DNA from: Pseudomicrostroma phylloplanum
Lineage: Eukaryota; Basidiomycota; Exobasidiomycetes; Microstromatales
Direction of reading: 5' to 3'
Length of the DNA: 64,000 bases
NCBI GenBank assembly: GCA_039545275.1
Contig: BCHS01000014.1
Span: 429,725 to 493,724 of the forward strand
Position 1 is the stretch's first letter, and each line of letters opens with the position of its first letter. The position numbers and the translations under genes are program-made. The notes under the pieces are model-generated. The model was not told the origin of the DNA, did not search any database, and was given only the letters and a program-made list of their open reading frames with translations. This document shows positions 34,176-44,721 of the stretch, piece by piece.

Positions 34176-37010
34176 TCACCACGATGAGCCTTCGCCGATG
34201 TGGGGAGAGGAAGCGGGGGTCACATACTGGCTCGATAGTCCGCTGCTCTGCAGTGATGAGAGGGACGGCTGAGGTATCAGGGTAGAGGGCGTCGCGTGCT
34301 TGTCTCCGAACGCACTGGGCGCGGAACAAGATGACAATAGGAATGACGGGACTACTGGCGAGCCTGCTCGCGAATGTGTGCGATCTCGGGAGGTCTGGGT
34401 GTGGAGATCATCATCAAGTAGGCCGGGCGAAGGAGACGTCGACCAAGCCGCTGAATGAGGATGAATCTGAAAAGCTCCTTCCTCTGAAGCTGTAGAAGCG
34501 AGGGTGTTGAGACTGGACGTTGCTTCAGAGGAAGTCCCGTAATCTGGCAATTTTGGATTGACGAAAGAAGAACTCGAATGCTGTGTTGATGCTGTGCCCG
34601 TATGTGAAAGGGACAGGGAAGCCATGCTCGTTGCAGCTGAGTCATGGCGCTGATGATGAGACGCTTCCGAGCCATTGCACCGCTGTGTGAGCCAGGTCAG
34701 AGCCGGCGCTGCCTTGAGCGAAGCTCGCTGATCAGTGCCAAAGTCCTGGACGCAGCTAGGCTCGGCCTTTTGCCGATGTGCAAGGATGGTGGAGATACTA
34801 CTTGCATTTGACTGCCGATTCGTATCGACAGAAGTCTCCCCGAAGAGCAAGCTAGCTCTGCGAGCACCTTCGGAAGGGCCCGCGGGGCTCTGTTCTCGGC
34901 GCTGTGGACGGTGACCTGGGGCATGAGCAAAGAGTACATCGTGTTGTTGCACAATGAATCGCAAGAGGGGGACGGGAATCGACAGCGTGGGCGCAAGCAC
35001 CAGACATATGTTGGATAGAGTCATCCGTGTCTTTGCTACATGTTCATTGGAGGAGACCTCTAGAAGATGCAAGGCGATCTCTCTCAGAAGATACCATTCG
35101 TAGACACCAGAGTCCTGTAGGCTATGTCGAGCTTCGTCGAGGTCGAATTTATCTCGGGAAAGCGAGCTCTCGAGCCTTCCAAGCTGGAGCCTGGTGAGAA
35201 GCGGGTGAGGAAGCTCCCGAAGGTACGCCTTGAAGATCGAACACACCGAATTGATATCGCAGTCGACGGGTGAGACGAGCTTAAGGTCTAGGTCGTGGGC
35301 AAAGGAGCCTTCTGGCACCCAAGGAGGCGCACACAGTCCATCAAAGAGAGCTCGGAGTCTGGCGGTATGGGAGGACCGACCAGACAGCCGGTAGATTCCT
35401 TCCTCTTGTAGTCCAAACGTCTCTAAAGACTCGAGGCACCTAGTCACAAATCTAGGCAGCATATGTTGCCTTGCGCTTTGACGATCAAGAGGCTGCGAAT
35501 CAACGCAAGGAGACTCTGGTGAAGGGGCCTTGGAGGTAGTGTTCGAGGAAGATACGACTGTATGATTTGGCTGAAAGCCACAGCTGTTGCCCGCTTCTCC
35601 TATCAAAAACGACTCAGGGAAAGTAAAGTCTGCACCGAAGTCAAGAGTGCCAAGTGTGGTGGGTGTAGATTCTGAGGGAGCGTAGCATAGACTTCCGTCT
35701 TGCTGTCTGCTACGATCGCTCTTGCTACGGATACCCAAAGAGTGATCTGAGTCTGCGCCTGGCGAGACGAGTCGAGTCTGAACTACAGCCGATGCAAGAG
35801 GTACGCCGAAGATTAGGCCACTGCCCGTAAAGGATTCTGACACCTCTGCATACTCCAGCTGCAGCCACCGCCGTGTGGCGTCGTTGGGTGGATCCCTCTG
35901 GACGAACAACGTTAGCGACGCTGCTGATCGATCTGCCTCCGTTTCTGGCGCCCCTCCTCGTCCGCGAACCACTGTCCAACCCTTTCTTCCGACAGATTTG
36001 ATGCTTTTCGTTACGACCGATGAAGTACTCTTGAGTTTGAGCTTACTGGTAGATCTCGGGAGCGGGGAAAAGCTCTGAGAGGAAGAGGGTCTATCGGAGC
36101 CTTTACACCCCTCCGGGGCGATGTCCGAGGACGAGGGAGGTGTTGGCGATTCCGATCGCGCAGCAGCACCAACAGATCGCGATACGTCTCCAACATGCTC
36201 ATGCTTCTCTAAAGGCCTTTTAGGTGCGAGGATTTTGCGACGTATACTGAAGCCATTGGCGCTCAGTAAGGAGGCAGAACTCAAGCTATTGCTCCTGCGA
36301 TGAGTTCGACTGATGTTAGAAGAAGTCCCTGGAGTGATGTGAGAGCCGTCGAGGCTGCACGACGCCAGACTGATCGAAGGGTCGGCCTGTTGAGATCGGG
36401 GAAAAACGCCTTGCCTGATGTAGTGTTCCACGTCTTCGCTCTTGTATACTCGGCGAGGAGCAGAAGGAGATTCTCGGGCCACGCTTTCGTCGACTGCACC
36501 CGTCATGGCAGCGGGGGCTTTGTCGCCTGCACGAGAAGGGGACTTGCCACGCGTGAGCTGGGAGAAGCTAGATCTTCTCTGACGGGTCTGTGTGCCGTGC
36601 GTCGGATGGTCCAGGGGTGGTGTCTGCGTCAAAGGAAGGGAGGAGGACGAGGACGCGAATCGAGGCGAGGTGGCGAGATTGAGTCCACTCGATCTGCGGA
36701 AGAGGGAAGAGTAGCGCCCTGACCTGTGATGGTCCTGAGCAGGCTCTGACGCAAGCGCCTGAGAAGGAGTCATCGGCCTCTGGAGCGAGGCTCTTGCTCT
36801 AGGCTGGCATTGTGGACTTGAAAGTTCGGCGCCGGGCCTTCCTGAATTAGGAGACGCTTTCCCTTGATTGGCATCTTTCCCCAAGAGATTGCGGGCGAGA
36901 GCCAGAGCAGACTTAGGCCGAGGGGGCGCCCTGCCTTCTGCCGTGTCTCGCAAGGCGTAGGCTGCGCGAGGTTCCGGACGATGTGAGTGCGAAGGTGAGA
37001 GCGCTGCCAT
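34176..37010 (-). CDS. RhoGAP-domain protein
   Basis: A single frame encodes 944 residues. The RhoGAP domain spans about 515-695. It contains LPRFVTRCLESLETFGLQEE, then GIYRLSG with the predicted catalytic arginine finger (about 540), FKAYLRELPHPLLT (about 597) and SNICLVLAPTLSIP (about 667). Such domains speed GTP hydrolysis on Rho, Rac or Cdc42 and act in cell polarity and cytokinesis. The flanks are Ser-rich and disordered, with many RRxS and SP sites that could be phosphorylated. A moderately conserved-looking stretch at about 310-400 (KGWTVVRGRGGAPETEADRS) could be part of a lipid- or membrane-binding region, but no domain is recognisable. Target GTPase is unknown. Confidence 0.9.
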   Translation of the reverse strand: MAALSPSHSHRPEPRAAYALRDTAEGRAPPRPKSALALARNLLGKDANQGKASPNSGRPGAELSSPQCQPRARASLQRPMTPSQALASEPAQDHHRSGRYSSLFRRSSGLNLATSPRFASSSSSLPLTQTPPLDHPTHGTQTRQRRSSFSQLTRGKSPSRAGDKAPAAMTGAVDESVARESPSAPRRVYKSEDVEHYIRQGVFPRSQQADPSISLASCSLDGSHITPGTSSNISRTHRRSNSLSSASLLSANGFSIRRKILAPKRPLEKHEHVGDVSRSVGAAARSESPTPPSSSDIAPEGCKGSDRPSSSQSFSPLPRSTSKLKLKSTSSVVTKSIKSVGRKGWTVVRGRGGAPETEADRSAASLTLFVQRDPPNDATRRWLQLEYAEVSESFTGSGLIFGVPLASAVVQTRLVSPGADSDHSLGIRSKSDRSRQQDGSLCYAPSESTPTTLGTLDFGADFTFPESFLIGEAGNSCGFQPNHTVVSSSNTTSKAPSPESPCVDSQPLDRQSARQHMLPRFVTRCLESLETFGLQEEGIYRLSGRSSHTARLRALFDGLCAPPWVPEGSFAHDLDLKLVSPVDCDINSVCSIFKAYLRELPHPLLTRLQLGRLESSLSRDKFDLDEARHSLQDSGVYEWYLLREIALHLLEVSSNEHVAKTRMTLSNICLVLAPTLSIPVPLLRFIVQQHDVLFAHAPGHRPQRREQSPAGPSEGARRASLLFGETSVDTNRQSNASSISTILAHRQKAEPSCVQDFGTDQRASLKAAPALTWLTQRCNGSEASHHQRHDSAATSMASLSLSHTGTASTQHSSSSFVNPKLPDYGTSSEATSSLNTLASTASEEGAFQIHPHSAAWSTSPSPGLLDDDLHTQTSRDRTHSRAGSPVVPSFLLSSCSAPSAFGDKHATPSTLIPQPSLSSLQSSGLSSQYVTPASSPHIGEGSSW

Positions 37011-39399
37011 CTCGCCGTACGCGCTCGTGGGATGGAGAAGGAGGGGCGGTCCAGTCTGCGCTGTACAGCAGTACTAGGGCGAATCCAGTGCTGCCAATGC
37101 ACATGGATACGGTGACGGGTTGCTAGCGCTGGGTGGAGTACCAAGAGGCAAGAAGGATTGTCAGGGGTACCGCTGAGGTGTGGGGTCCATGTCGTGGTTG
37201 GTTCAACGAGGAACACCAGCTTCCCATCTCCGCCGCGCCGCGACCCGCGCCTGATTCACAGTTGCAACTCCGCCCACAATCAACCCGCAAGCCACGCGCT
37301 TCTCGAGACCCTGAAACGGACTCGTCAGGGCTGCTCACGAGGACGAATTGCCGCTGCCCTCACGCGAGCAGTGATACCTTGTCTCAATCTCCCTTCGAAA
37401 ATAGTCGGTCATACAGACTGAATGGCAATGCCATGCAGTAGACTGCTACGTCAACGAACGATCAGACACAGCCCCAGCCCGCCGGGAGCCTCCCTGTGGC
37501 CCATCGGCAAGGCGTCAAGGATTGCAAGTCACCAGGTGAAGTAGGGATCGTTCGGACAGCCCGCGCAGGGTTTTGTGTCTTTCCTGTTGCGGAAACTCAC
37601 GTCCATGTTGTATGCTCATATGTTACTGCGAGGACGGAACCCACGAGAAGAATGATGAGTCGCCAGTCGCATTTGATGAGCCGTTGACGTCCATTGGGAG
37701 ACCAGAGATGCCGACGACCACCTGCCGGAAGGCTAGACCTGGAGCTAAGTCAAGCAAAGATGCCCTCATGCAGCCCGCATCAGGCTCACAAGCATTATGT
37801 CTCGCCGTCGCAAATCGTATCACTTCAGCGGTGTCTTTGTCAACATCGCAGACATAGGCATGGTCCTGTCCAAGGCATGGGAACAGTGTGGCGTATTCAG
37901 ACCTGCCAGCGGCTACTTCCTGCTGCTTCGAGTTTCTGTCATGCTACGCTGGAAGTTGAAGCAGCCTCGTTCAGATGGGAGTTGCTAGGAGAACTCTCAG
38001 AGAGATCTCACCGCCGCACTGAAAGCTTCAAGTGAAGGCGTGGACCATTGAAATGGGTCCACTTTGCCGGTCCGGAACAGATCGAGGGCGAGTAAAGCAC
38101 ACAAAGCTCAATGTGGAGCGGGAGAAAAGGCATACGCCGTGTTCAGGCCAAGGAAATCAACGGCATGGTCGTCCTTAATTCATGCACCGCAGCGGCATGT
38201 TTCATGAAAGCTCCAAGGGCTTCCGATGGAACGCATGGCTTCTTGCATGCCGCATGCCGTCCACACGATGTTACCTCATACGCGTGGAGCCGCAAGGCTC
38301 GGACCAAGGTCCGTGGCGAGATAGACTTCGGTCGGCCAGGGGCAGCGGGCGTCGCGGGACACCAGCTGATGGAACGGCTGACATTCGGAACTTCGTGGGC
38401 AAGGGCCGAGCAACCAGAACGAGACCATACATACCTTCGCCTGGAAGCAAACTTGGTCATCTCTCCTATCGACGATGGTTCGTAAAGTCAGGAGACTGTC
38501 AGATAGGGGATCCCCGGGCTCCGGCAAAGTCTCTGAGGAAGCCACACCTCAAGGTTTACATAGCAAGCACATACGAAAACGTTCAACGTCAAGGCTTCTA
38601 CTGCTGAAGACTGATCTTTACTCTGCTGCTGCCTGGCTGTCTGGCTTGCTGGTATTGGATGGATGTTTCGGACTTTTGCGCAGGAGCCTGCTTGGGGTTT
38701 ACCAAAGCCCATCCCCACGGTCACCGGTGGACGATCTAAGATTACATTTCCGAGACAGGCAAGTCACTCCGATCGACCCGCTTTGTTGCTTGCCCCTCGT
38801 GAAAACTATGTGGTCGGCTGAGCACGCTTGCTACAACTCTCTCGGGCAGTCAGTGACGTCGGAAGCTGTTCCGCGCGTTTGACATGTTTCCCTCAGGGAT
38901 TGTACACCTCTGTCTTGCACTCAATCCCGGGCACGAGAGTCTTGCAAAACGCAACATGAGGTCAATACTGTACAAGGCTGAAGCTGCAAGTTTACTTCTC
39001 CATGTGACGTTCTTGTTCCTGTACAACAGTCTGGTGTCTGACTCCCTGAGACTCCGGGTATCCTCATCAGGCCGTTGCAGATGTCCCGTTTCCCTGACAC
39101 TGCCTTGCATTGTGCACCGCAATCCTCCGCAGTTCTCCCACACCAACTGCGATACTGCTGTACGGCACTTTTTGTAGCTGCTGTAAGGAGAGATCAACAC
39201 CCCATTGGTATAGAGTCACTACCGAAGATGACATTGTGATTGACAATCTGATCCTCTCTAAATTCAAATTGTCGAGGGGAGTCCGATCCTCCTGTCCCGT
39301 AGATCAGCAAGCGCTGTGGTAATCCCCTTCGTACGCAGACGTGTACTGAAAATCATACATCTGTCTTTGCCAAACATCGCATGCATGAATTTTGAAGTC

Positions 39400-39560
39400 A
39401 CAGTACTGTACTCCGCGTTGCTTCCAATTGCGTAATCTTGCACTCCTAGTGAGCAATGTTTGCAAGCAATTGCGTAACAATTGCATACACGCGTAATTTT
39501 GCAGAGCAATGCGTAAAAGCAGCAGTCCAATTGCGTAATTTTGCACAATTTGCGTAAAGT
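39400..39560 (-). repeat. Island element, copy 1
   Basis: Read on the minus strand, units of 21, 21, 18, 21, 22 and 21 nt each begin TGCAA or similar and carry TTACGCAATTGG or a variant. Perfect core matches occur at 39527-39539 and 39424-39436. The copy ends in a CGGAGTACAGTACTGT motif. Confidence 0.75.
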
Positions 39561-39698
39561 GACCAGAGGCTTGACAGCCTAGAGTCACAGACTGTCTTTG
39601 GAAATTTGAGGCAGCAGTGTGAGGGGAGAAGCAAGTGCAAACAACTGTGTAAGAAGCTTTTGTGCAGAGGCTAGCGCTACCAGGGAATATCACGGATA

Positions 39699-39873
39699 TC
39701 AGATTTACGCAGATTGCTGCAATTTTACTCATTTGCTGTGCAAATTTACGCATCTGTTGCAATTATTACGCAATTGGACGCAAAGATTACTCATCAGAGC
39801 TGCAAAATTATGCACTACCTGCAAAAGTTACGCTTTTGGCTGCAATGTGGAGTAAGCGGAAATACTGTACTCA
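39699..39873 (+). repeat. Island element, copy 2
   Basis: Units of about 21, 19, 21, 22, 19 and 21 nt follow an opening ATTTACGCAGATTGC. The core ATTACGCAATTGG is at 39765-39777. The copy ends TGCAATGTGGAGTA...ATACTGTAC. It is opposite in orientation to copy 1, about 140 nt away, so the two form a diverged inverted pair. Confidence 0.75.
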
Positions 39874-41036
39874 GGCCGGACTGCGGGCACATCGTCTCAA
39901 ATATCTGCCTATTCAGACAGCGGCACTCTGCGACCAAGGGCCCCGACGTGTACTTACTGTACTGTAGTACCGTTCGACCGACCGACCCTGTTGTTGTGCA
40001 AGGCAGGCCGTTCGTGCAGTTGCCCCGCCGCTACAAAAGAGGTCGAAGCCAGCTGTCAAAGCTGTCAGTCTCCGATATCGAACACTAGTCTTTCTGCGAC
40101 TCAAATCTAGCCAGTGATGCTGAGTTTGGCAGCTTGTTCTGGAGTCTGGCAGCCTGACTCTCGTTGTGGCCTTTTGAGCCATGAATCAGTCCACACTTTG
40201 GCCAACGCCGGGCACTACTCCTTCGTCACTCAATTTCAGCCAGCGACAGCATATTCTAGCCGATTGCCTCAACATTCTGCAGGCGCAAGAAGACTGTAGC
40301 AGCCCGCAGGTTCAATTACAGTAGGGCAGCTAGACACTGCTCTAGTGCCTGAGTCCTGCTAGATTAGACTGTGGCTTGACCTCAAGCTCAGCTCGCTGAA
40401 CCGCGAGGCAGCCGCCAGATCTCACAAACGCCTGCCAATCTGGATCTCATTTGACTCGGTCTGAGTGACGAAAGGATACTCAGCCGCTTCTTGAGAATGT
40501 CACTACAGTATCTGTGGTCTGATTGCGCAGACTCGCCCGGTCATAGTGATGTCTGACCGCTACGACAACTTGTACCGCAACATTGAACTTGGGAGTGAAT
40601 GGTAAAGAATGGAGAAGTTTGTGCGTCGAGTCTTGCGCCCACTTCTAGGAACTGGCGGATCCTCACAGTGTGCAGGACAAGCTTTTTGGGCGCAGAAAGT
40701 TTCGGAAAAAGCTTTTCTTCTGAGGAGAGATGAGAAGGTACAGGCATTGCCAAGTTCAGAGCGAAATCTAGATGCAATGACGGCAATGTCCACGCTCACT
40801 GCGGGCTTCATTGCCATATTGAGACCGCTACTGTATTGCCGCGCCATGGCCTGTTGTCAGCCGTAGTACGACGAAGAATTGCAAGTGGGGTGGAGATTCC
40901 AGCCTCCTTCCCGCAGGCTCCTTTCGTCACTCACTTCTGCTGCTGTGCCCAATTGCTAGCCAGTGGAAAAATATCTTGACAGCATGCATGTCCAAAAGTA
41001 GCCGCGTGACAATGCTCGAGTACACGAGCTGTTGAA

Positions 41037-41182
41037 AGTCTGAAGCGTAATATTTGCAAGCAGTGCGTAAGTTTGCAGTATCAATCAGTAATTGTTGCAC
41101 CCAATTGCGTAATCTTTGCAGTTCATGCGGATTGTTGCACACCAATTGAGTAAGTCTGCAGCATCTGCGTAACATCTGACAG
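41037..41182 (-). repeat. Island element, copy 3
   Basis: On the minus strand the copy opens ATGTTACGCAGATGC and continues with units of 21, 19, 21, 22, 19 and 21 nt, matching copy 2 in unit lengths. The perfect core lies at 41101-41113. Confidence 0.75.
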
Positions 41183-41281
41183 CGTCTTTCGACATCAATT
41201 ACCGAGGCGGCACTGTATTTGTATGCCATTACATGAATGCAGATAGATCCTTCTCCTGAGTGCTGCAGTCAAAACTGCACA

Positions 41282-41304
41282 AGCTCTCCTGCTGCAGGAG
41301 AGCT
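41282..41304. repeat. Perfect palindrome (11-nt arms, 1-nt centre)
   Basis: The arms AGCTCTCCTGC and GCAGGAGAGCT are exact reverse complements separated by a single T. The palindrome sits directly in front of island element copy 4. Confidence 0.9.
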
Positions 41305-41306
41305 CG

Positions 41307-41457
41307 CTCATACAATTTGTGCAAAATACGCAATTGGTACTGTATGCTGCTATCACGCCTTGCTTCGCAAAGACACGCACATATGCAGGCATTACGCAAT
41401 TGGCCGCAGAAATCACTTACTTTTGCTGCACAACGTGACGCGGAGTATTGCGTAATG
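41307..41457 (+). repeat. Island element, copy 4
   Basis: The copy opens CTCATACAATTTG and has units of 21, 24, 19, 21 and 22 nt, ending GACGCGGAGTATTGCG as in copy 1. The perfect core lies at 41391-41403. Confidence 0.7.
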
Positions 41458-41491
41458 TCTGGCAGCAACATTGAACCAACATGGCATGCCT

Positions 41492-41650
41492 CTCCTACGC
41501 AGGTCGTGCAAAATAATGCAAGAGTATTGCTGCTATTATGCATTGCTGTGCGAAATCACGAGTCTGTGCAATAATGATGCGATTCCTCGCAAAGATTACT
41601 CACTATCAGTACAAGATTACACTGATGGCCGCAACAAGGACCACAGTCAC
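41492..41650 (+). repeat. Island element, copy 5 (diverged)
   Basis: Units still begin TGCAA, TGCGAA or CGCAA at about 18-24-nt spacing, and the unit CGCAAAGATTACTCA is identical to the matching unit in copy 2. The other cores are degraded. Confidence 0.6.
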
Positions 41651-41727
41651 TGTTGCTGCCCGAGAAAGGAAGAACGGACATGTGAAAGCTGAGACAGCTG
41701 CCAGAATGTTGGCATGTCTTGTCTGTC

Positions 41728-41875
41728 AGGTCATCTGCAATTTGCGGTGCAGAAGTAGACACATACTGCCACTATTACGTGATGGACCGCGAGGAGCACT
41801 CACTTCACCTGCGGAACTCCTACACGCTACCTGCAGCTTTCGCGCTTTTGGATGCAATGTAGAGTACTGTATTAC
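41728..41875 (+). repeat. Island element, copy 6 (diverged)
   Basis: This copy has lost most TTACGCAATTGG cores but keeps the unit spacing and order. It ends CGCGCTTTTGGATGCAATGT, close to the end of copy 2 (TTACGCTTTTGGCTGCAATG), followed by AGAGTACTGTA. Confidence 0.6.
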
Positions 41876-42870
41876 TTCCGTACTTGAAAAAATCTGACAT
41901 CAGCAGTTTGAGATCAAGTCTGGCAGCCTGCCTCGCGATCTAGCTAAGCTGCACGACAGAACGTTCCGGAGGTTGATCGACCGTGCAAGTGTCCGGACAC
42001 GACCACTGTGATATTGACTTTATGGCGGCCTCATTTGCCTCTCTGCTCTCATCCGCTACATTAGGGTAAGATGGTCAACTCTGCCGCAGCCTGTTGAATC
42101 TCTGTGCTCTGCATAGCCCGTGAGAACAGGTTTTCCCCCATTCATTTCATGGGCAGTCATTGCTCAAGCGGCAACAAAGCAATTTGATATCTCTCAGACC
42201 GTCCCATACTGGAGGTACAGTACAGCGTACATGCCCGGGAAAGGCAGAACCGTTGTCATGGGCTTTCACTCCGAAGAGGGCGGCATCGCTAACGCGTGTG
42301 CGAACATAGCTGAGTGAAGACACAGGTATACTCGACCATAACATGGTCGGAGGAGCATTTCTGCCATCATGTTGTGTCATAAGTACTGGTCTTGCTGTCT
42401 ATCGCGGCGTGCAGAATGGCGGCGCGACGCTTGCCTTTCCGGACACCCAAGCGAAGTCGTCCGGGAGAGGTTGTCACAGCTGCTCCGGCTGGCGCCTGCC
42501 CCCGCATACTGTGGACAAGGGCATGCGGGACGTCTGTGACATCAAAGCTGCCGGAAGTGCCCACTTTCGTCGACTCTCATGAATGCAATGCAATGACAAT
42601 GATCATGTGGAACTGCCGCGACAGAGCGGGAAATGTGGTCATCTAGCCGACAATGGAGCAGGAATTAAGACACATTGCGCGGTGCGACTATCACCAGCGG
42701 ACATCAATTGAATTGGAGGACGGAGAGAAACAAGGCAGAATCTTTGGCTAGCGCAGAGCACGATTTGTTATCGTATACCGCTTTGGTGGGTAGAAGGAGC
42801 ATGATAGAATGTGCCCCTCACGCCCTAGTAGGCCGCGAGGAAGTTGGGAGGAATCCGAGAGAGAAGTTGA

Positions 42871-44721
42871 CTATGCCGCAACCCCAATACGATCGATATC
42901 CGGTGCATAGCGACTGAGATAATGGCCTCCGCTTACGGCCAGAGTGTTCGCTGTTCCAACATTGAAGCCACTCAAGTCAACCTTGAAGCCCTGCCACACA
43001 TCTTGCGCCCAATTGTAGCCCGAGAGAGGAAACAATATTTCTTGTGGATTGCCGCCATTGACTCGGACATTGGCTCCAATAGCAGAGGTACCATTGGTAC
43101 CAATGTATGAGATGTTGGCGTTGACATAGTCAAAGTAGACGGTCTGAGTAGTAGCCTTTGATGCTACGTTCGCAAAAGTCACCGTACCAACGTAGCCAAC
43201 GTTCCTACCTCCACTGCATCCAGCACACGCTTGTGCTACTGCGCCCCCTGAAAGAGCAGCAGCTTCGGCTTCATAGTACCTCAGACTTGGTGCGGCGGCG
43301 CTCGATGCTACGAGGTTGGACAATCGGAGAACGATCACTCCGTGAGGGAGAACAGTGCCAGCGAACGAGGAGACCTTTGTGCGCCGCTGCTTCGACCAAA
43401 GCTCGTACATGTCGGCTGTCGAAATGCCGAATTGGGAAAAGTTGATCGTGTACGAGCGGACTTGGTTGCCCTGCTCGATTAGGAGGACGATACGATCTCC
43501 GTTGGCCAAGGTTCCCTGATATAAGTCGTAAGCATTCGAGTATCTCTGTACAAGCCTCACAGGCTCTCCCTTGGTGTCTTGGTTGAGTGCGATAACATCC
43601 GTGTTCTTAAGGATGGTCAGCGTGTTTTGGGAAGCGCTGCTCAGGTCTGTGGAGATCTGTCGTGATCAGTACAAGGACGGCAGTGGGTGAGCCTTGGTTG
43701 CTATCATCGAAGTGTCAACGTCCGTGCACCACCGTGTGTACGGTTCCGATGGGTAAGATGAAAACACATACCATCAGAGGACTCTTCAATGCCGCCCAGA
43801 GCGTGAAGTGCGTCTTTTGCTCTTCGAACGTCAAGATGTTGTTACCGATCTCGAGGAGATCTGCGTCGGCATAGGAAGAGGGCCCGCTGAGACCTTTGTT
43901 GACGATGTGCATGGCCTGATTTGAGATACGGACCACGGATACCCAGTCGTTGCTGATATCGTCGCTCAGACGAAAGCTGGTAGACAAATTAGCTGTCCAT
44001 TGCGCAGGGCCCTGCAGGCCCGAAGCGCTTGAGTACGGAACGCCCCACTGGCACACCTCCATTCCGCCGATCCCTTGGGCAGTCAGGGCCCTCGACATGA
44101 CACTGTAGCGAGTGATGAAATCGGACGCTGGGGTCTTCGGGGCATTGTTGCGGCCGTCGACGAAGCAGTTGTCCACTTTGACCGTGACGGTGCCGAGCGA
44201 TTTGAAGAATGCGGCATCGGCGGCTTCATGACCCAGTGAACCGATTGCTCCGCGACTGAGGTCAGTGTCGCAGCTCAATTGTCCCTGATCGGTATACATG
44301 CCCCAAGCCATTCCAGCAGCTCGCACGTCATTGGCAAGCTGTTGGAAGCCGTTGGGAAAGCGGTCAGCCACGACAGAAATGGCTCCGTTCGAGCTGTTTC
44401 GGAAGCTTGCCTGCCAGCCGCAGTCGACCTGGAACAGAGAATACCCCAGCGAAATGAGACCATTGGATTTCAGAGCATTGAGATTTGCCCGAGCCTTGGC
44501 CTCGCTCGGGGCGCAGCCGTATGCGTTGTATGAATTCCAGCCCTGAGGACGGGAAAAGCAGGCAAGGTCAGACTTCAACTGGCCAGAAAGTAGCGCGCAG
44601 AGAGCCTTACCATTTGCGGCAGAGCGCCAACGCCATCATTGCGCTGTGCCAGGACGCCTGCCGACCATGTGAATGCTGCCGCTAGGAGCAGAGCGGCCAG
44701 AGAGCCCAGTGAAGTATGCAT
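42871..44721 (-). CDS. Secreted alpha-galactosidase, GH27 + CBM35-like module
   Basis: Hydrolyses terminal alpha-1,6-galactose from oligosaccharides and galactomannan outside the cell. Exons 44611-44721, 43772-44542 and 42871-43656 (introns 68 and 115 nt) give 555 residues. Exon 1 encodes a signal peptide (cleavage likely after VLA, about residue 25). The junctions give PQMGWNSYNAYGC and SPLMISTDLSSAS, both standard GH27 sequence. The catalytic nucleophile is the Asp of KVDNC and the acid/base lies in RLSDD. An antiparallel beta domain follows. Residues about 430-555 (YYEAEAAALSGGAV to SRYAPDIDRIGVA) form a CBM35-like carbohydrate-binding module. A TATA-like sequence lies about 100 nt upstream. 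Both catalytic residues are present, so it should be active. Confidence 0.95.

What the first reader, a model, noticed from the sequence alone, without database searches (positions are those of the whole stretch)
39400..41880. Undescribed ~150-nt element in at least six copies, both orientations
Seen directly: six blocks share an ordered set of about seven subunits. The unit order is conserved, not just the 21-nt theme: for example the penultimate 22-nt unit reads CGCAAAGATTACTCA in copies 2 and 5, with related forms in copies 1, 4 and 6, always after a unit resembling TGCAATTATTACGCAATTGG. Copies 2 and 3 agree in unit lengths (15, 21, 19, 21, 22, 19, 21). So the blocks descend from one ancestral element, spread in both orientations, and are diverged. 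I know of no named family like this. It could be a non-autonomous mobile element, a structured non-coding RNA locus, or a protein-binding array.
Basis: seen in the sequence. Interest (0 to 1): 0.78.

Follow-up and report, generated by a model that had tools for sequence, protein, structure and literature searches.

The report
Transposon-built putative centromere, one per chromosome
The repeated blocks are arms of small mobile DNA elements that, in this fungus-like genome, were found only at one short spot on each of its 20 contigs, which is the pattern expected of centromeres, the sites that pull chromosomes apart at cell division.

Summary
The blocks are real, but the unit is larger than 150 nt. 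Window 39409-39854 is a 446-bp element whose two ~150-bp arms are inverted copies. Copies about 98% identical, with the same sharp ends (TACTCC...GGAGTA), lie on contigs C2 and C17 in unrelated flanks. It is a non-coding, hairpin-forming MITE ("A"); other blocks are decayed copies. A second MITE family ("B", 256 bp, TIR CTCCTTTCGT, 8/10 like plant Stowaway) shares the locus. Hits fall in one short cluster per contig: A 36/36, B 80/80, an LTR query 6/6, a B-end 25-mer 57/57 with reversed control 0. Together 20 of 20 contigs have exactly one cluster. All 14 clusters read as DNA are GC troughs. Best reading: these are the centromeres. TACWGTA is about 30-fold enriched there (191 per 63 kb against 10 per 104 kb) and overlaps 10 of 27 five-base insertion sites between copies against 10 of 329 other short ones; it is probably the MITEs' excision footprint. 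One trough holds a chromodomain Ty3/gypsy frame. Argonaute and RdRP matches exist.

The parts
37011..42870 (.). Putative centromere region: 5.9 kb without a recognised gene; GC minimum of the window (lowest 2-kb window 0.49, start 39251)
   Evidence: Composition; none of the 14 ORFs of 100 aa or more lying wholly in it (list) has a Pfam match; flanking genes
39409..39854 (+). MITE A, 446 bp, ends TACTCC...GGAGTA; copies about 98% identical at C17:10542-10988 and C2:1237439-1237885
   Evidence: hairpin z -6.5
39409..39556 (-). Left arm of A (block 1): phased TGCGTAA motifs
39700..39854 (+). Right arm of A (block 2): phased TTACGCA motifs
40099..40217 (-). Fragment of MITE B (74% identity)
   Evidence: one search hit C14:469823-469941
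40216..40476 (+). Old copy of MITE B (70% identity); its joined flanks match the inside of a B copy on C8
   Evidence: one search hit C14:469940-470200
41020..41444 (-). Decayed A copy in reverse orientation (blocks 3 and 4); 41043-41421 aligns, the ends are inferred
   Evidence: z 30.8
41496..41640 (-). A left-arm remnant (block 5)
   Evidence: z 39.8
41740..41866 (+). A right-arm remnant with end GAGTA (block 6)
   Evidence: z 14.8
40317..40323 (.). TACAGTA, seen as a 5-bp insertion relative to a C8 copy: putative excision footprint
41338..41344 (.). TACTGTA, seen as a 5-bp insertion relative to a C3 copy: putative excision footprint
38966..42222 (.). Span of 11 TACWGTA sites: 38966, 39404, 39863, 39955, 39960, 40317, 40504, 40829, 41338, 41865, 42216; 2 others in the rest of the 64-kb window
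34176..37010 (-). Left flanking gene, RhoGAP domain
42871..44578 (-). Right flanking gene, alpha-galactosidase (two ORF pieces)

Best explanation
The array is part of a short regional centromere. In this genome each contig (probably each chromosome) has one GC-poor locus of about 3-9 kb that is built from nested copies of at least two TA-flanked, Stowaway-like MITE families (A and B), their excision footprints (TACWGTA), and in places a chromodomain Ty3/gypsy element or what look like its solo LTRs. The MITEs would be moved by a mariner-type transposase supplied in trans. Insertion duplicates TA. Excision leaves two-base CT overhangs on both flanks, which join through a central T:T mismatch and are filled in to TA-C(A/T)G-TA. 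Repeated rounds give TA(CWGTA)n chains. Insertions elsewhere are avoided or lost, so the elements pile up at the centromere and now form its sequence. Shown: one cluster per contig, the GC trough in the 14 loci read, sharp ends, TA flanks, one TA empty site (for B), enrichment of the footprint-like word, and 5-bp insertions that form it. Inferred: kinetochore binding, the transposase class, the overhang chemistry and the cause of the confinement.
For: One cluster per contig: the 25-bp end of B gives 57 genome hits (<=3 mismatches), reversed control 0; they fall in a single cluster on each of 19 contigs, on C13 7.8 kb apart on either side of a gypsy element. C14 is covered by the window and the B search. 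A: 36 of 36 hits (12 contigs), B: 80 of 80 (19 contigs, all but C13), LTR query: 6 of 6 (4 contigs), all inside the same 20 clusters. The 14 loci read as DNA are GC troughs. A has copies of about 98% with identical ends in unrelated flanks and folds end to end (z -6.5). Two pairs of B copies on different contigs are 98.8% identical over exactly 256 bp. For the C20 B copy the joined flanks align to C5 with no gap at the TA junction. TA-CWG-TA: 191 in 63 kb against 10 in 104 kb; TA-CT-TA 24 against 2; TA-CA-TA 10 against 10, which favours a source element starting CT (as A and B do) over one starting CA. Chains of 2-4 steps have mixed A/T; 131 single sites show no longer motif. With alignments at one place merged, five-base insertions between copies overlap TACWGTA at 10 of 27 sites against 10 of 329 for other lengths from 1 to 12, p 1.2e-7 (unmerged 12 of 29 against 13 of 442). 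A chromodomain Ty3/gypsy frame lies in the C13 trough.
Against: No kinetochore, CENP-A or Hi-C data. Six loci (C1, C6, C12, C15, C16, C18) are known from search hits only, so their GC trough is untested; the C13 trough runs to the edge of the stretch read. C13 rests on two 25-mer hits with 3 mismatches, the LTR element and the trough: it has no A or B search hit and one exact TGCGTAA. The weaker 19-bp A-end pattern with up to 2 mismatches gives 27 hits, 17 in the clusters and 10 outside, with 10 control hits; its 8 hits with 0-1 mismatch are all in the clusters. No transposase: DDE_1 (control silent) and DDE_3 gave nothing, and 10 trough ORFs tested had no Pfam match. TACWGTA is not enriched over the whole genome (1275 sites against 1791 for the reversed word), and its chains also occur outside the clusters (list cut at C10). 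The commonest published Stowaway footprint (TA...GTA) is not the form seen here, and TA-C-TA is not enriched (52 in the troughs against 73). A's TIR matches the Stowaway consensus at only 4 of 10 positions. Of 25 joined-flank queries (22 B pairings, 3 A) only 6 aligned across the junction, none of them A: C20 has no gap there, C14 has none but decayed ends, C8:5463, C17 and C19 carry about 4-5 extra bases (read here as earlier footprints), and C8:4920 lacks 11. TA stands at both ends in 15 of the 22 B pairings. That the contigs are whole chromosomes is assumed.
Confidence: 0.8

Rival explanations
1. Subtelomeric or generally repeat-rich islands that collect MITEs, not centromeres.
For: 15 of 20 clusters lie within about 70 kb of a contig end (positions, contig lengths).
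Against: Five clusters are far inside (C1 600 kb, C2 1237 kb, C7 312 kb, C13 195 kb, C15 275 kb). No contig shows a second cluster in the A, B, LTR and 25-mer searches. In the window genes continue for about 21 kb beyond the cluster, Sec7-like and ISWI-like among them.
Confidence: 0.1
2. The A arms are functional protein-binding arrays: kinetochore- or replication-linked factors bind TGCGTAA every ~20.5 bp, and the mobile look comes from gene conversion between centromeres.
For: Strict two-turn phasing, 38 of 38 spacings; the exact 7-mer is present at 14 of 14 loci read.
Against: Conversion would not be expected to stop exactly at TACTCC/GGAGTA in three loci. TA empty site for B. Several loci keep only 1-2 exact motifs (C4, C9, C11, C13).
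Confidence: 0.25
3. TACWGTA is not a footprint but a host-factor site or an insertion hot spot for these MITEs.
For: Several B ends abut CTG/CAG; the word is present genome-wide at low density.
Against: Five-base insertions overlap it at 10 of 27 sites against 10 of 329 for other lengths; 5-bp-step chains with mixed A/T; no conserved flanks beyond a mild C/G preference; TA-CT-TA is co-enriched and TA-CA-TA is not.
Confidence: 0.2
4. Structured non-coding RNA locus.
For: A folds into a long hairpin.
Against: No Rfam match at gathering in the window or at E 0.1 in 38800-42400. The hairpin is what long inverted repeats give.
Confidence: 0.03

Closest known systems
Short regional centromeres of Malassezia (eLife 2020, PMC7025860; passages read)
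   Same: One per chromosome, at a GC trough in an intergenic region, 3-5 kb, enriched for a short motif in both orientations.
   Different: In M. sympodialis no direct or inverted repeats were found, and these species lack RNAi machinery. Here the locus is made of MITEs and footprints, the motif is carried by a mobile element, and Argonaute and RdRP matches are present.
Stowaway MITEs and mariner-like elements of plants (PMC1925063, PMC3660474, PMC4561436; passages read)
   Same: TA target duplication, TIR starting CTCC, small, non-coding, palindromic, excision footprints holding 1-4 bases of the ends, re-insertion beside footprints.
   Different: Not a plant. Found in one locus per contig only. 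A's TIR departs after CTCC and its ~150-bp arms carry phased repeats. The dominant footprint-like word is TACWGTA. No transposase found.
Repeat- and retrotransposon-bearing centromeres of fungi (Verticillium PMC7482064 and Ganoderma PMC10817607, search listing only; Salmacisia PMC10849329, passages read)
   Same: Centromere sequence associated with mobile elements; here too a Ty3/gypsy element with a chromodomain lies in one locus.
   Different: Those predicted in Salmacisia are 32-181 kb and LTR-rich. Here 3-9 kb and mostly DNA-transposon MITEs.

Membership tests
Centromere (regional, short) | Exactly one locus per chromosome | tested here: met
   20 of 20 contigs have one cluster; that contigs equal chromosomes is assumed
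Centromere (regional, short) | GC trough / gene-poor | tested here: met
   14 of 14 loci read are GC troughs; 5.9 kb without a recognised gene in the window, 14 of 14 ORFs without Pfam match; 6 loci not read, gene content of the other 13 not mapped
Centromere (regional, short) | CENP-A / kinetochore occupancy | not testable with these tools
   needs ChIP-seq
Malassezia-type centromere | Lack of repeats | tested here: not met
   MITE families A and B and an LTR element
Malassezia-type centromere | RNAi machinery absent | tested here: not met
   Piwi 1.0e-77, RdRP 6.5e-75; Dicer not searched
Stowaway MITE | 2-bp TA target duplication | tested here: met
   TA at both ends of the three A copies and of 15 of 22 B pairings; TA empty site without a gap at the junction for one B copy, C20; none available for A
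Stowaway MITE | 10-bp TIR consensus CTCCCTCCRT | tested here: inconclusive
   B CTCCTTTCGT 8 of 10; A CTCCGCGTTG 4 of 10 (counted by eye; consensus from PMC1925063)
Stowaway MITE | Small, non-coding, hairpin potential | tested here: met
   446 and 256 bp; A z -6.5 (B not folded); frames over A have no Pfam match
Stowaway MITE | Mobilised by a mariner-like transposase | tested here: inconclusive
   DDE_1 and DDE_3 gave no match in the assembly; the DDE_1 control was silent
Named transposon family in a repeat library | Match to a library entry | not testable with these tools
   no repeat library on hand

The most novel reading that the evidence does not exclude
A centromere system that recruits and feeds on its own DNA transposons: Stowaway-like MITEs insert only into centromeric chromatin, and their phased subterminal arrays and TACWGTA footprints have become the sequence recognised by the kinetochore, giving short, sequence-defined centromeres in a fungus that keeps RNAi genes.
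Probability: 0.2. Interest if true: 0.88.

Novelty: new variant of a known kind. Interest (0 to 1): 0.68.

Why it matters
If confirmed, it gives a full set of 20 small, sequence-readable centromeres in one genome and a clear case of cut-and-paste DNA transposons, rather than LTR retrotransposons or satellites, building centromeres. The strict confinement makes the question of how mobile elements home to centromeres testable. It is also a candidate counter-example to the proposal that short centromeres go with loss of RNAi (proposal as in PMC7025860, passages).

Tried and rejected
Structured RNA: Rfam gave nothing; tRNA none. Transposase by DDE_1 and DDE_3 in the whole assembly: none. Ten long trough ORFs against Pfam: none. 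A Sleeping-Beauty-type source starting CAG for the footprints (recalled) was considered first; TA-CA-TA is not enriched while TA-CT-TA is, so the CT-ended A/B families are preferred. A strand bias of TACAGTA on C1 was not pursued, because the hit list is cut. A first gap analysis returned nothing, probably because BLAST rejected the scoring settings; it was rerun with other settings and with neighbouring alignments merged. C1:1279000-1288999 was fetched after a 2-mismatch end-pattern hit and proved to have no trough; it then served as background. One fetched contig-start stretch that reads N was left out of the background. Organism naming by a protein search failed (19 hits, no organism names). 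Paper searches for a fungal centromere of this kind, for Stowaway in fungi and for footprints listed nothing that describes it; only titles and abstract starts were seen, except for passages of PMC7025860, PMC1925063, PMC3660474, PMC4561436, PMC10849329 and PMC9977792.
Full report
WHAT IS THERE. The window is the last 64 kb of contig C14 of a 17.08-Mb, 20-contig assembly (contig length). It is a eukaryote: an EF1A/HBS1-like GTPase, IQGAP-like RasGAP, RhoGAP, Sec7/BIG and ISWI-type genes by Pfam, long uninterrupted frames, about 57% GC. The finding lies in the window's GC minimum (2-kb windows of 0.49-0.50), in 5.9 kb without a recognised gene between a RhoGAP gene (ends 37010) and an alpha-galactosidase gene (starts 42871). 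None of the 14 ORFs of 100 aa or more lying wholly in that stretch has a Pfam match (list; 5, 9).

THE ELEMENT. They are arms of a larger unit. A genome search found the stretch 39408-39854 at C17:10542-10988 (98%) and C2:1237439-1237885 (98%), with similarity stopping at the same letters and unrelated flanks. The unit A reads TACTCCGCGTTGC...GCAATGTGGAGTA. Its arms pair end to end (z -6.5 against 100 shuffles) and hold TGCGTAA motifs with quantised spacing: 38 of 38 consecutive spacings of 100 bp or less, over 14 loci, are 19-22, 39-42, 60-61 or 81 bp. Window 41043-41421, 41496-41640 and 41740-41866 are decayed A copies or parts (z 30.8, 39.8 and 14.8).

ONE CLUSTER PER CONTIG. All 36 A matches lie on 12 contigs in one place each. 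Enriched words in the troughs led to a second family, B: a 25-bp end motif with 57 genome hits at 3 mismatches or fewer (reversed control 0), one cluster on each of 19 contigs (on C13 the two hits are 7.8 kb apart). A full B copy gave 80 matches on 19 contigs, C14 included and C13 not, all in those clusters. An LTR from the C13 locus gave 6 matches on C9, C11, C13 and C20, again only there. These searches score only the best candidates, so counts are lower bounds. A weaker test is less clean: the 19-bp A-end pattern with up to 2 mismatches gives 27 hits, 17 in clusters and 10 outside, and the reversed control gives 10; its 8 hits with 0-1 mismatch are all in clusters. I read 14 of the 20 loci as DNA: all are GC troughs, 1-kb minima 0.46-0.50, in flanks mostly of 0.53-0.58; the C13 trough runs on to the edge of the stretch read. 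C1, C6, C12, C15, C16 and C18 are known by hits only. C13 is the weakest member: two 25-mers with 3 mismatches, the LTR element and one exact TGCGTAA. Fifteen of the 20 loci lie within about 70 kb of a contig end, five well inside (positions; lengths).

MOBILITY. B is 256 bp in 7 of 22 end-to-end pairings and 181-305 bp in the others. Two pairs of copies on different contigs (C8/C9 and C17/C20) are 98.8% identical over exactly 256 bp in unrelated flanks. TA stands at both ends of the three A copies and of 15 of the 22 B pairings, and I see no longer duplication. Joined flanks were compared with the other loci for 25 queries; 6 aligned across the junction. For B in C20 there is no gap at the TA junction against C5 (a 34-base gap lies 10 bases to the right): a TA empty site. 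C14 also has no gap there but its ends are decayed. B at C8:5463 sits inside an A copy, with five extra bases in the joined site; C17 and C19 carry about 4-5 extra bases; C8:4920 lacks 11. No A copy gave an empty site.

FOOTPRINTS. Of all TA-NNN-TA words, CAG/CTG stands far out: 191 in 63 kb of troughs against 10 in 104 kb of background. TA-CT-TA is also enriched (24 against 2), as is TA-CAA-TA (15 against 2); TA-CA-TA is not (10 against 10), nor TA-C-TA (52 against 73), nor TA-CTC-TA (5 against 4). Chains TA(CWGTA)n of 2, 3 and 4 steps occur 20, 4 and 2 times with mixed A/T; the background has none. Single sites have no longer motif (131 sites; a mild C/G preference next to the TA). Between repeat copies, with alignments at one place merged, 10 of 27 five-base insertion sites overlap TACWGTA against 10 of 329 of the other lengths from 1 to 12, p 1.2e-7 (unmerged 12 of 29 against 13 of 442). 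Two of them are in the window (40317, 41338). A two-base CT overhang at both flanks, joined with a central T:T mismatch and filled in, gives TAC(A/T)GTA; that chemistry is my inference. Published Stowaway and Osmar5 footprints keep 1-4 bases of the ends, and an insertion beside a footprint is described (PMC1925063, passages; PMC4561436, passages), but the commonest form there is TA...GTA. Over the whole genome the word is not enriched (1275 sites against 1791 for the reversed word); two-step chains are (72 sites on one strand, reversed control 15), and in the part of the list shown, C1-C10, some lie outside the clusters.

OTHER CONTENT. The C13 trough holds a 1254-aa Ty3/gypsy frame with reverse transcriptase, integrase and a C-terminal chromodomain. 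Argonaute and RdRP matches are present; Dicer was not searched. No DDE_1 or DDE_3 transposase was found (the DDE_1 control was silent), and 10 trough ORFs had no Pfam match.

READING. Unrelated repeat families (two MITEs and an LTR element) confined to one short GC trough on each of 20 contigs is what centromeres would give. Subtelomeres would be expected at both ends and not inside. The closest described case I saw is Malassezia (PMC7025860, passages): single 3-5-kb GC-trough centromeres enriched in a 12-bp motif, but without repeats and in RNAi-deficient species. The mobile elements work like, and B by its ends resembles, plant Stowaway MITEs; A matches that TIR consensus at only 4 of 10 positions, so I do not file A as a Stowaway member. 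Why the elements stay at these loci (targeting, selection or conversion) is open. Kinetochore binding is the missing proof.

Noticed in passing
C13 locus, L048:5680-9444 (-): Ty3/gypsy pol frame of 1254 aa with a C-terminal chromodomain inside the putative centromere; ~500-bp LTR-like copies on C9 and C20, fragments on C11.
   Followed up: partly
contig positions of the 20 clusters: 15 of 20 putative centromeres lie within about 70 kb of a contig end, so most chromosomes would be strongly acrocentric if the contigs are complete.
   Followed up: partly
L051:1-77 (C12 start), L054:1-66 (C18 start), L056:84-133 (C5 end): No TTAGGG or CCCTAA in the first 600 bases of four contig starts or in two 250-base ends looked at; three of these ends show repeated stretches with periods of 64, 50 and 17 bases.
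   Followed up: partly
G000:C1:2033724-2101577: A second, looser group of TACAGTA sites on C1 (25 listed), away from the C1 cluster at 600 kb.
   Followed up: no
window 63569: Single exact TGCGTAA outside the trough, the only one in the rest of the window.
   Followed up: no
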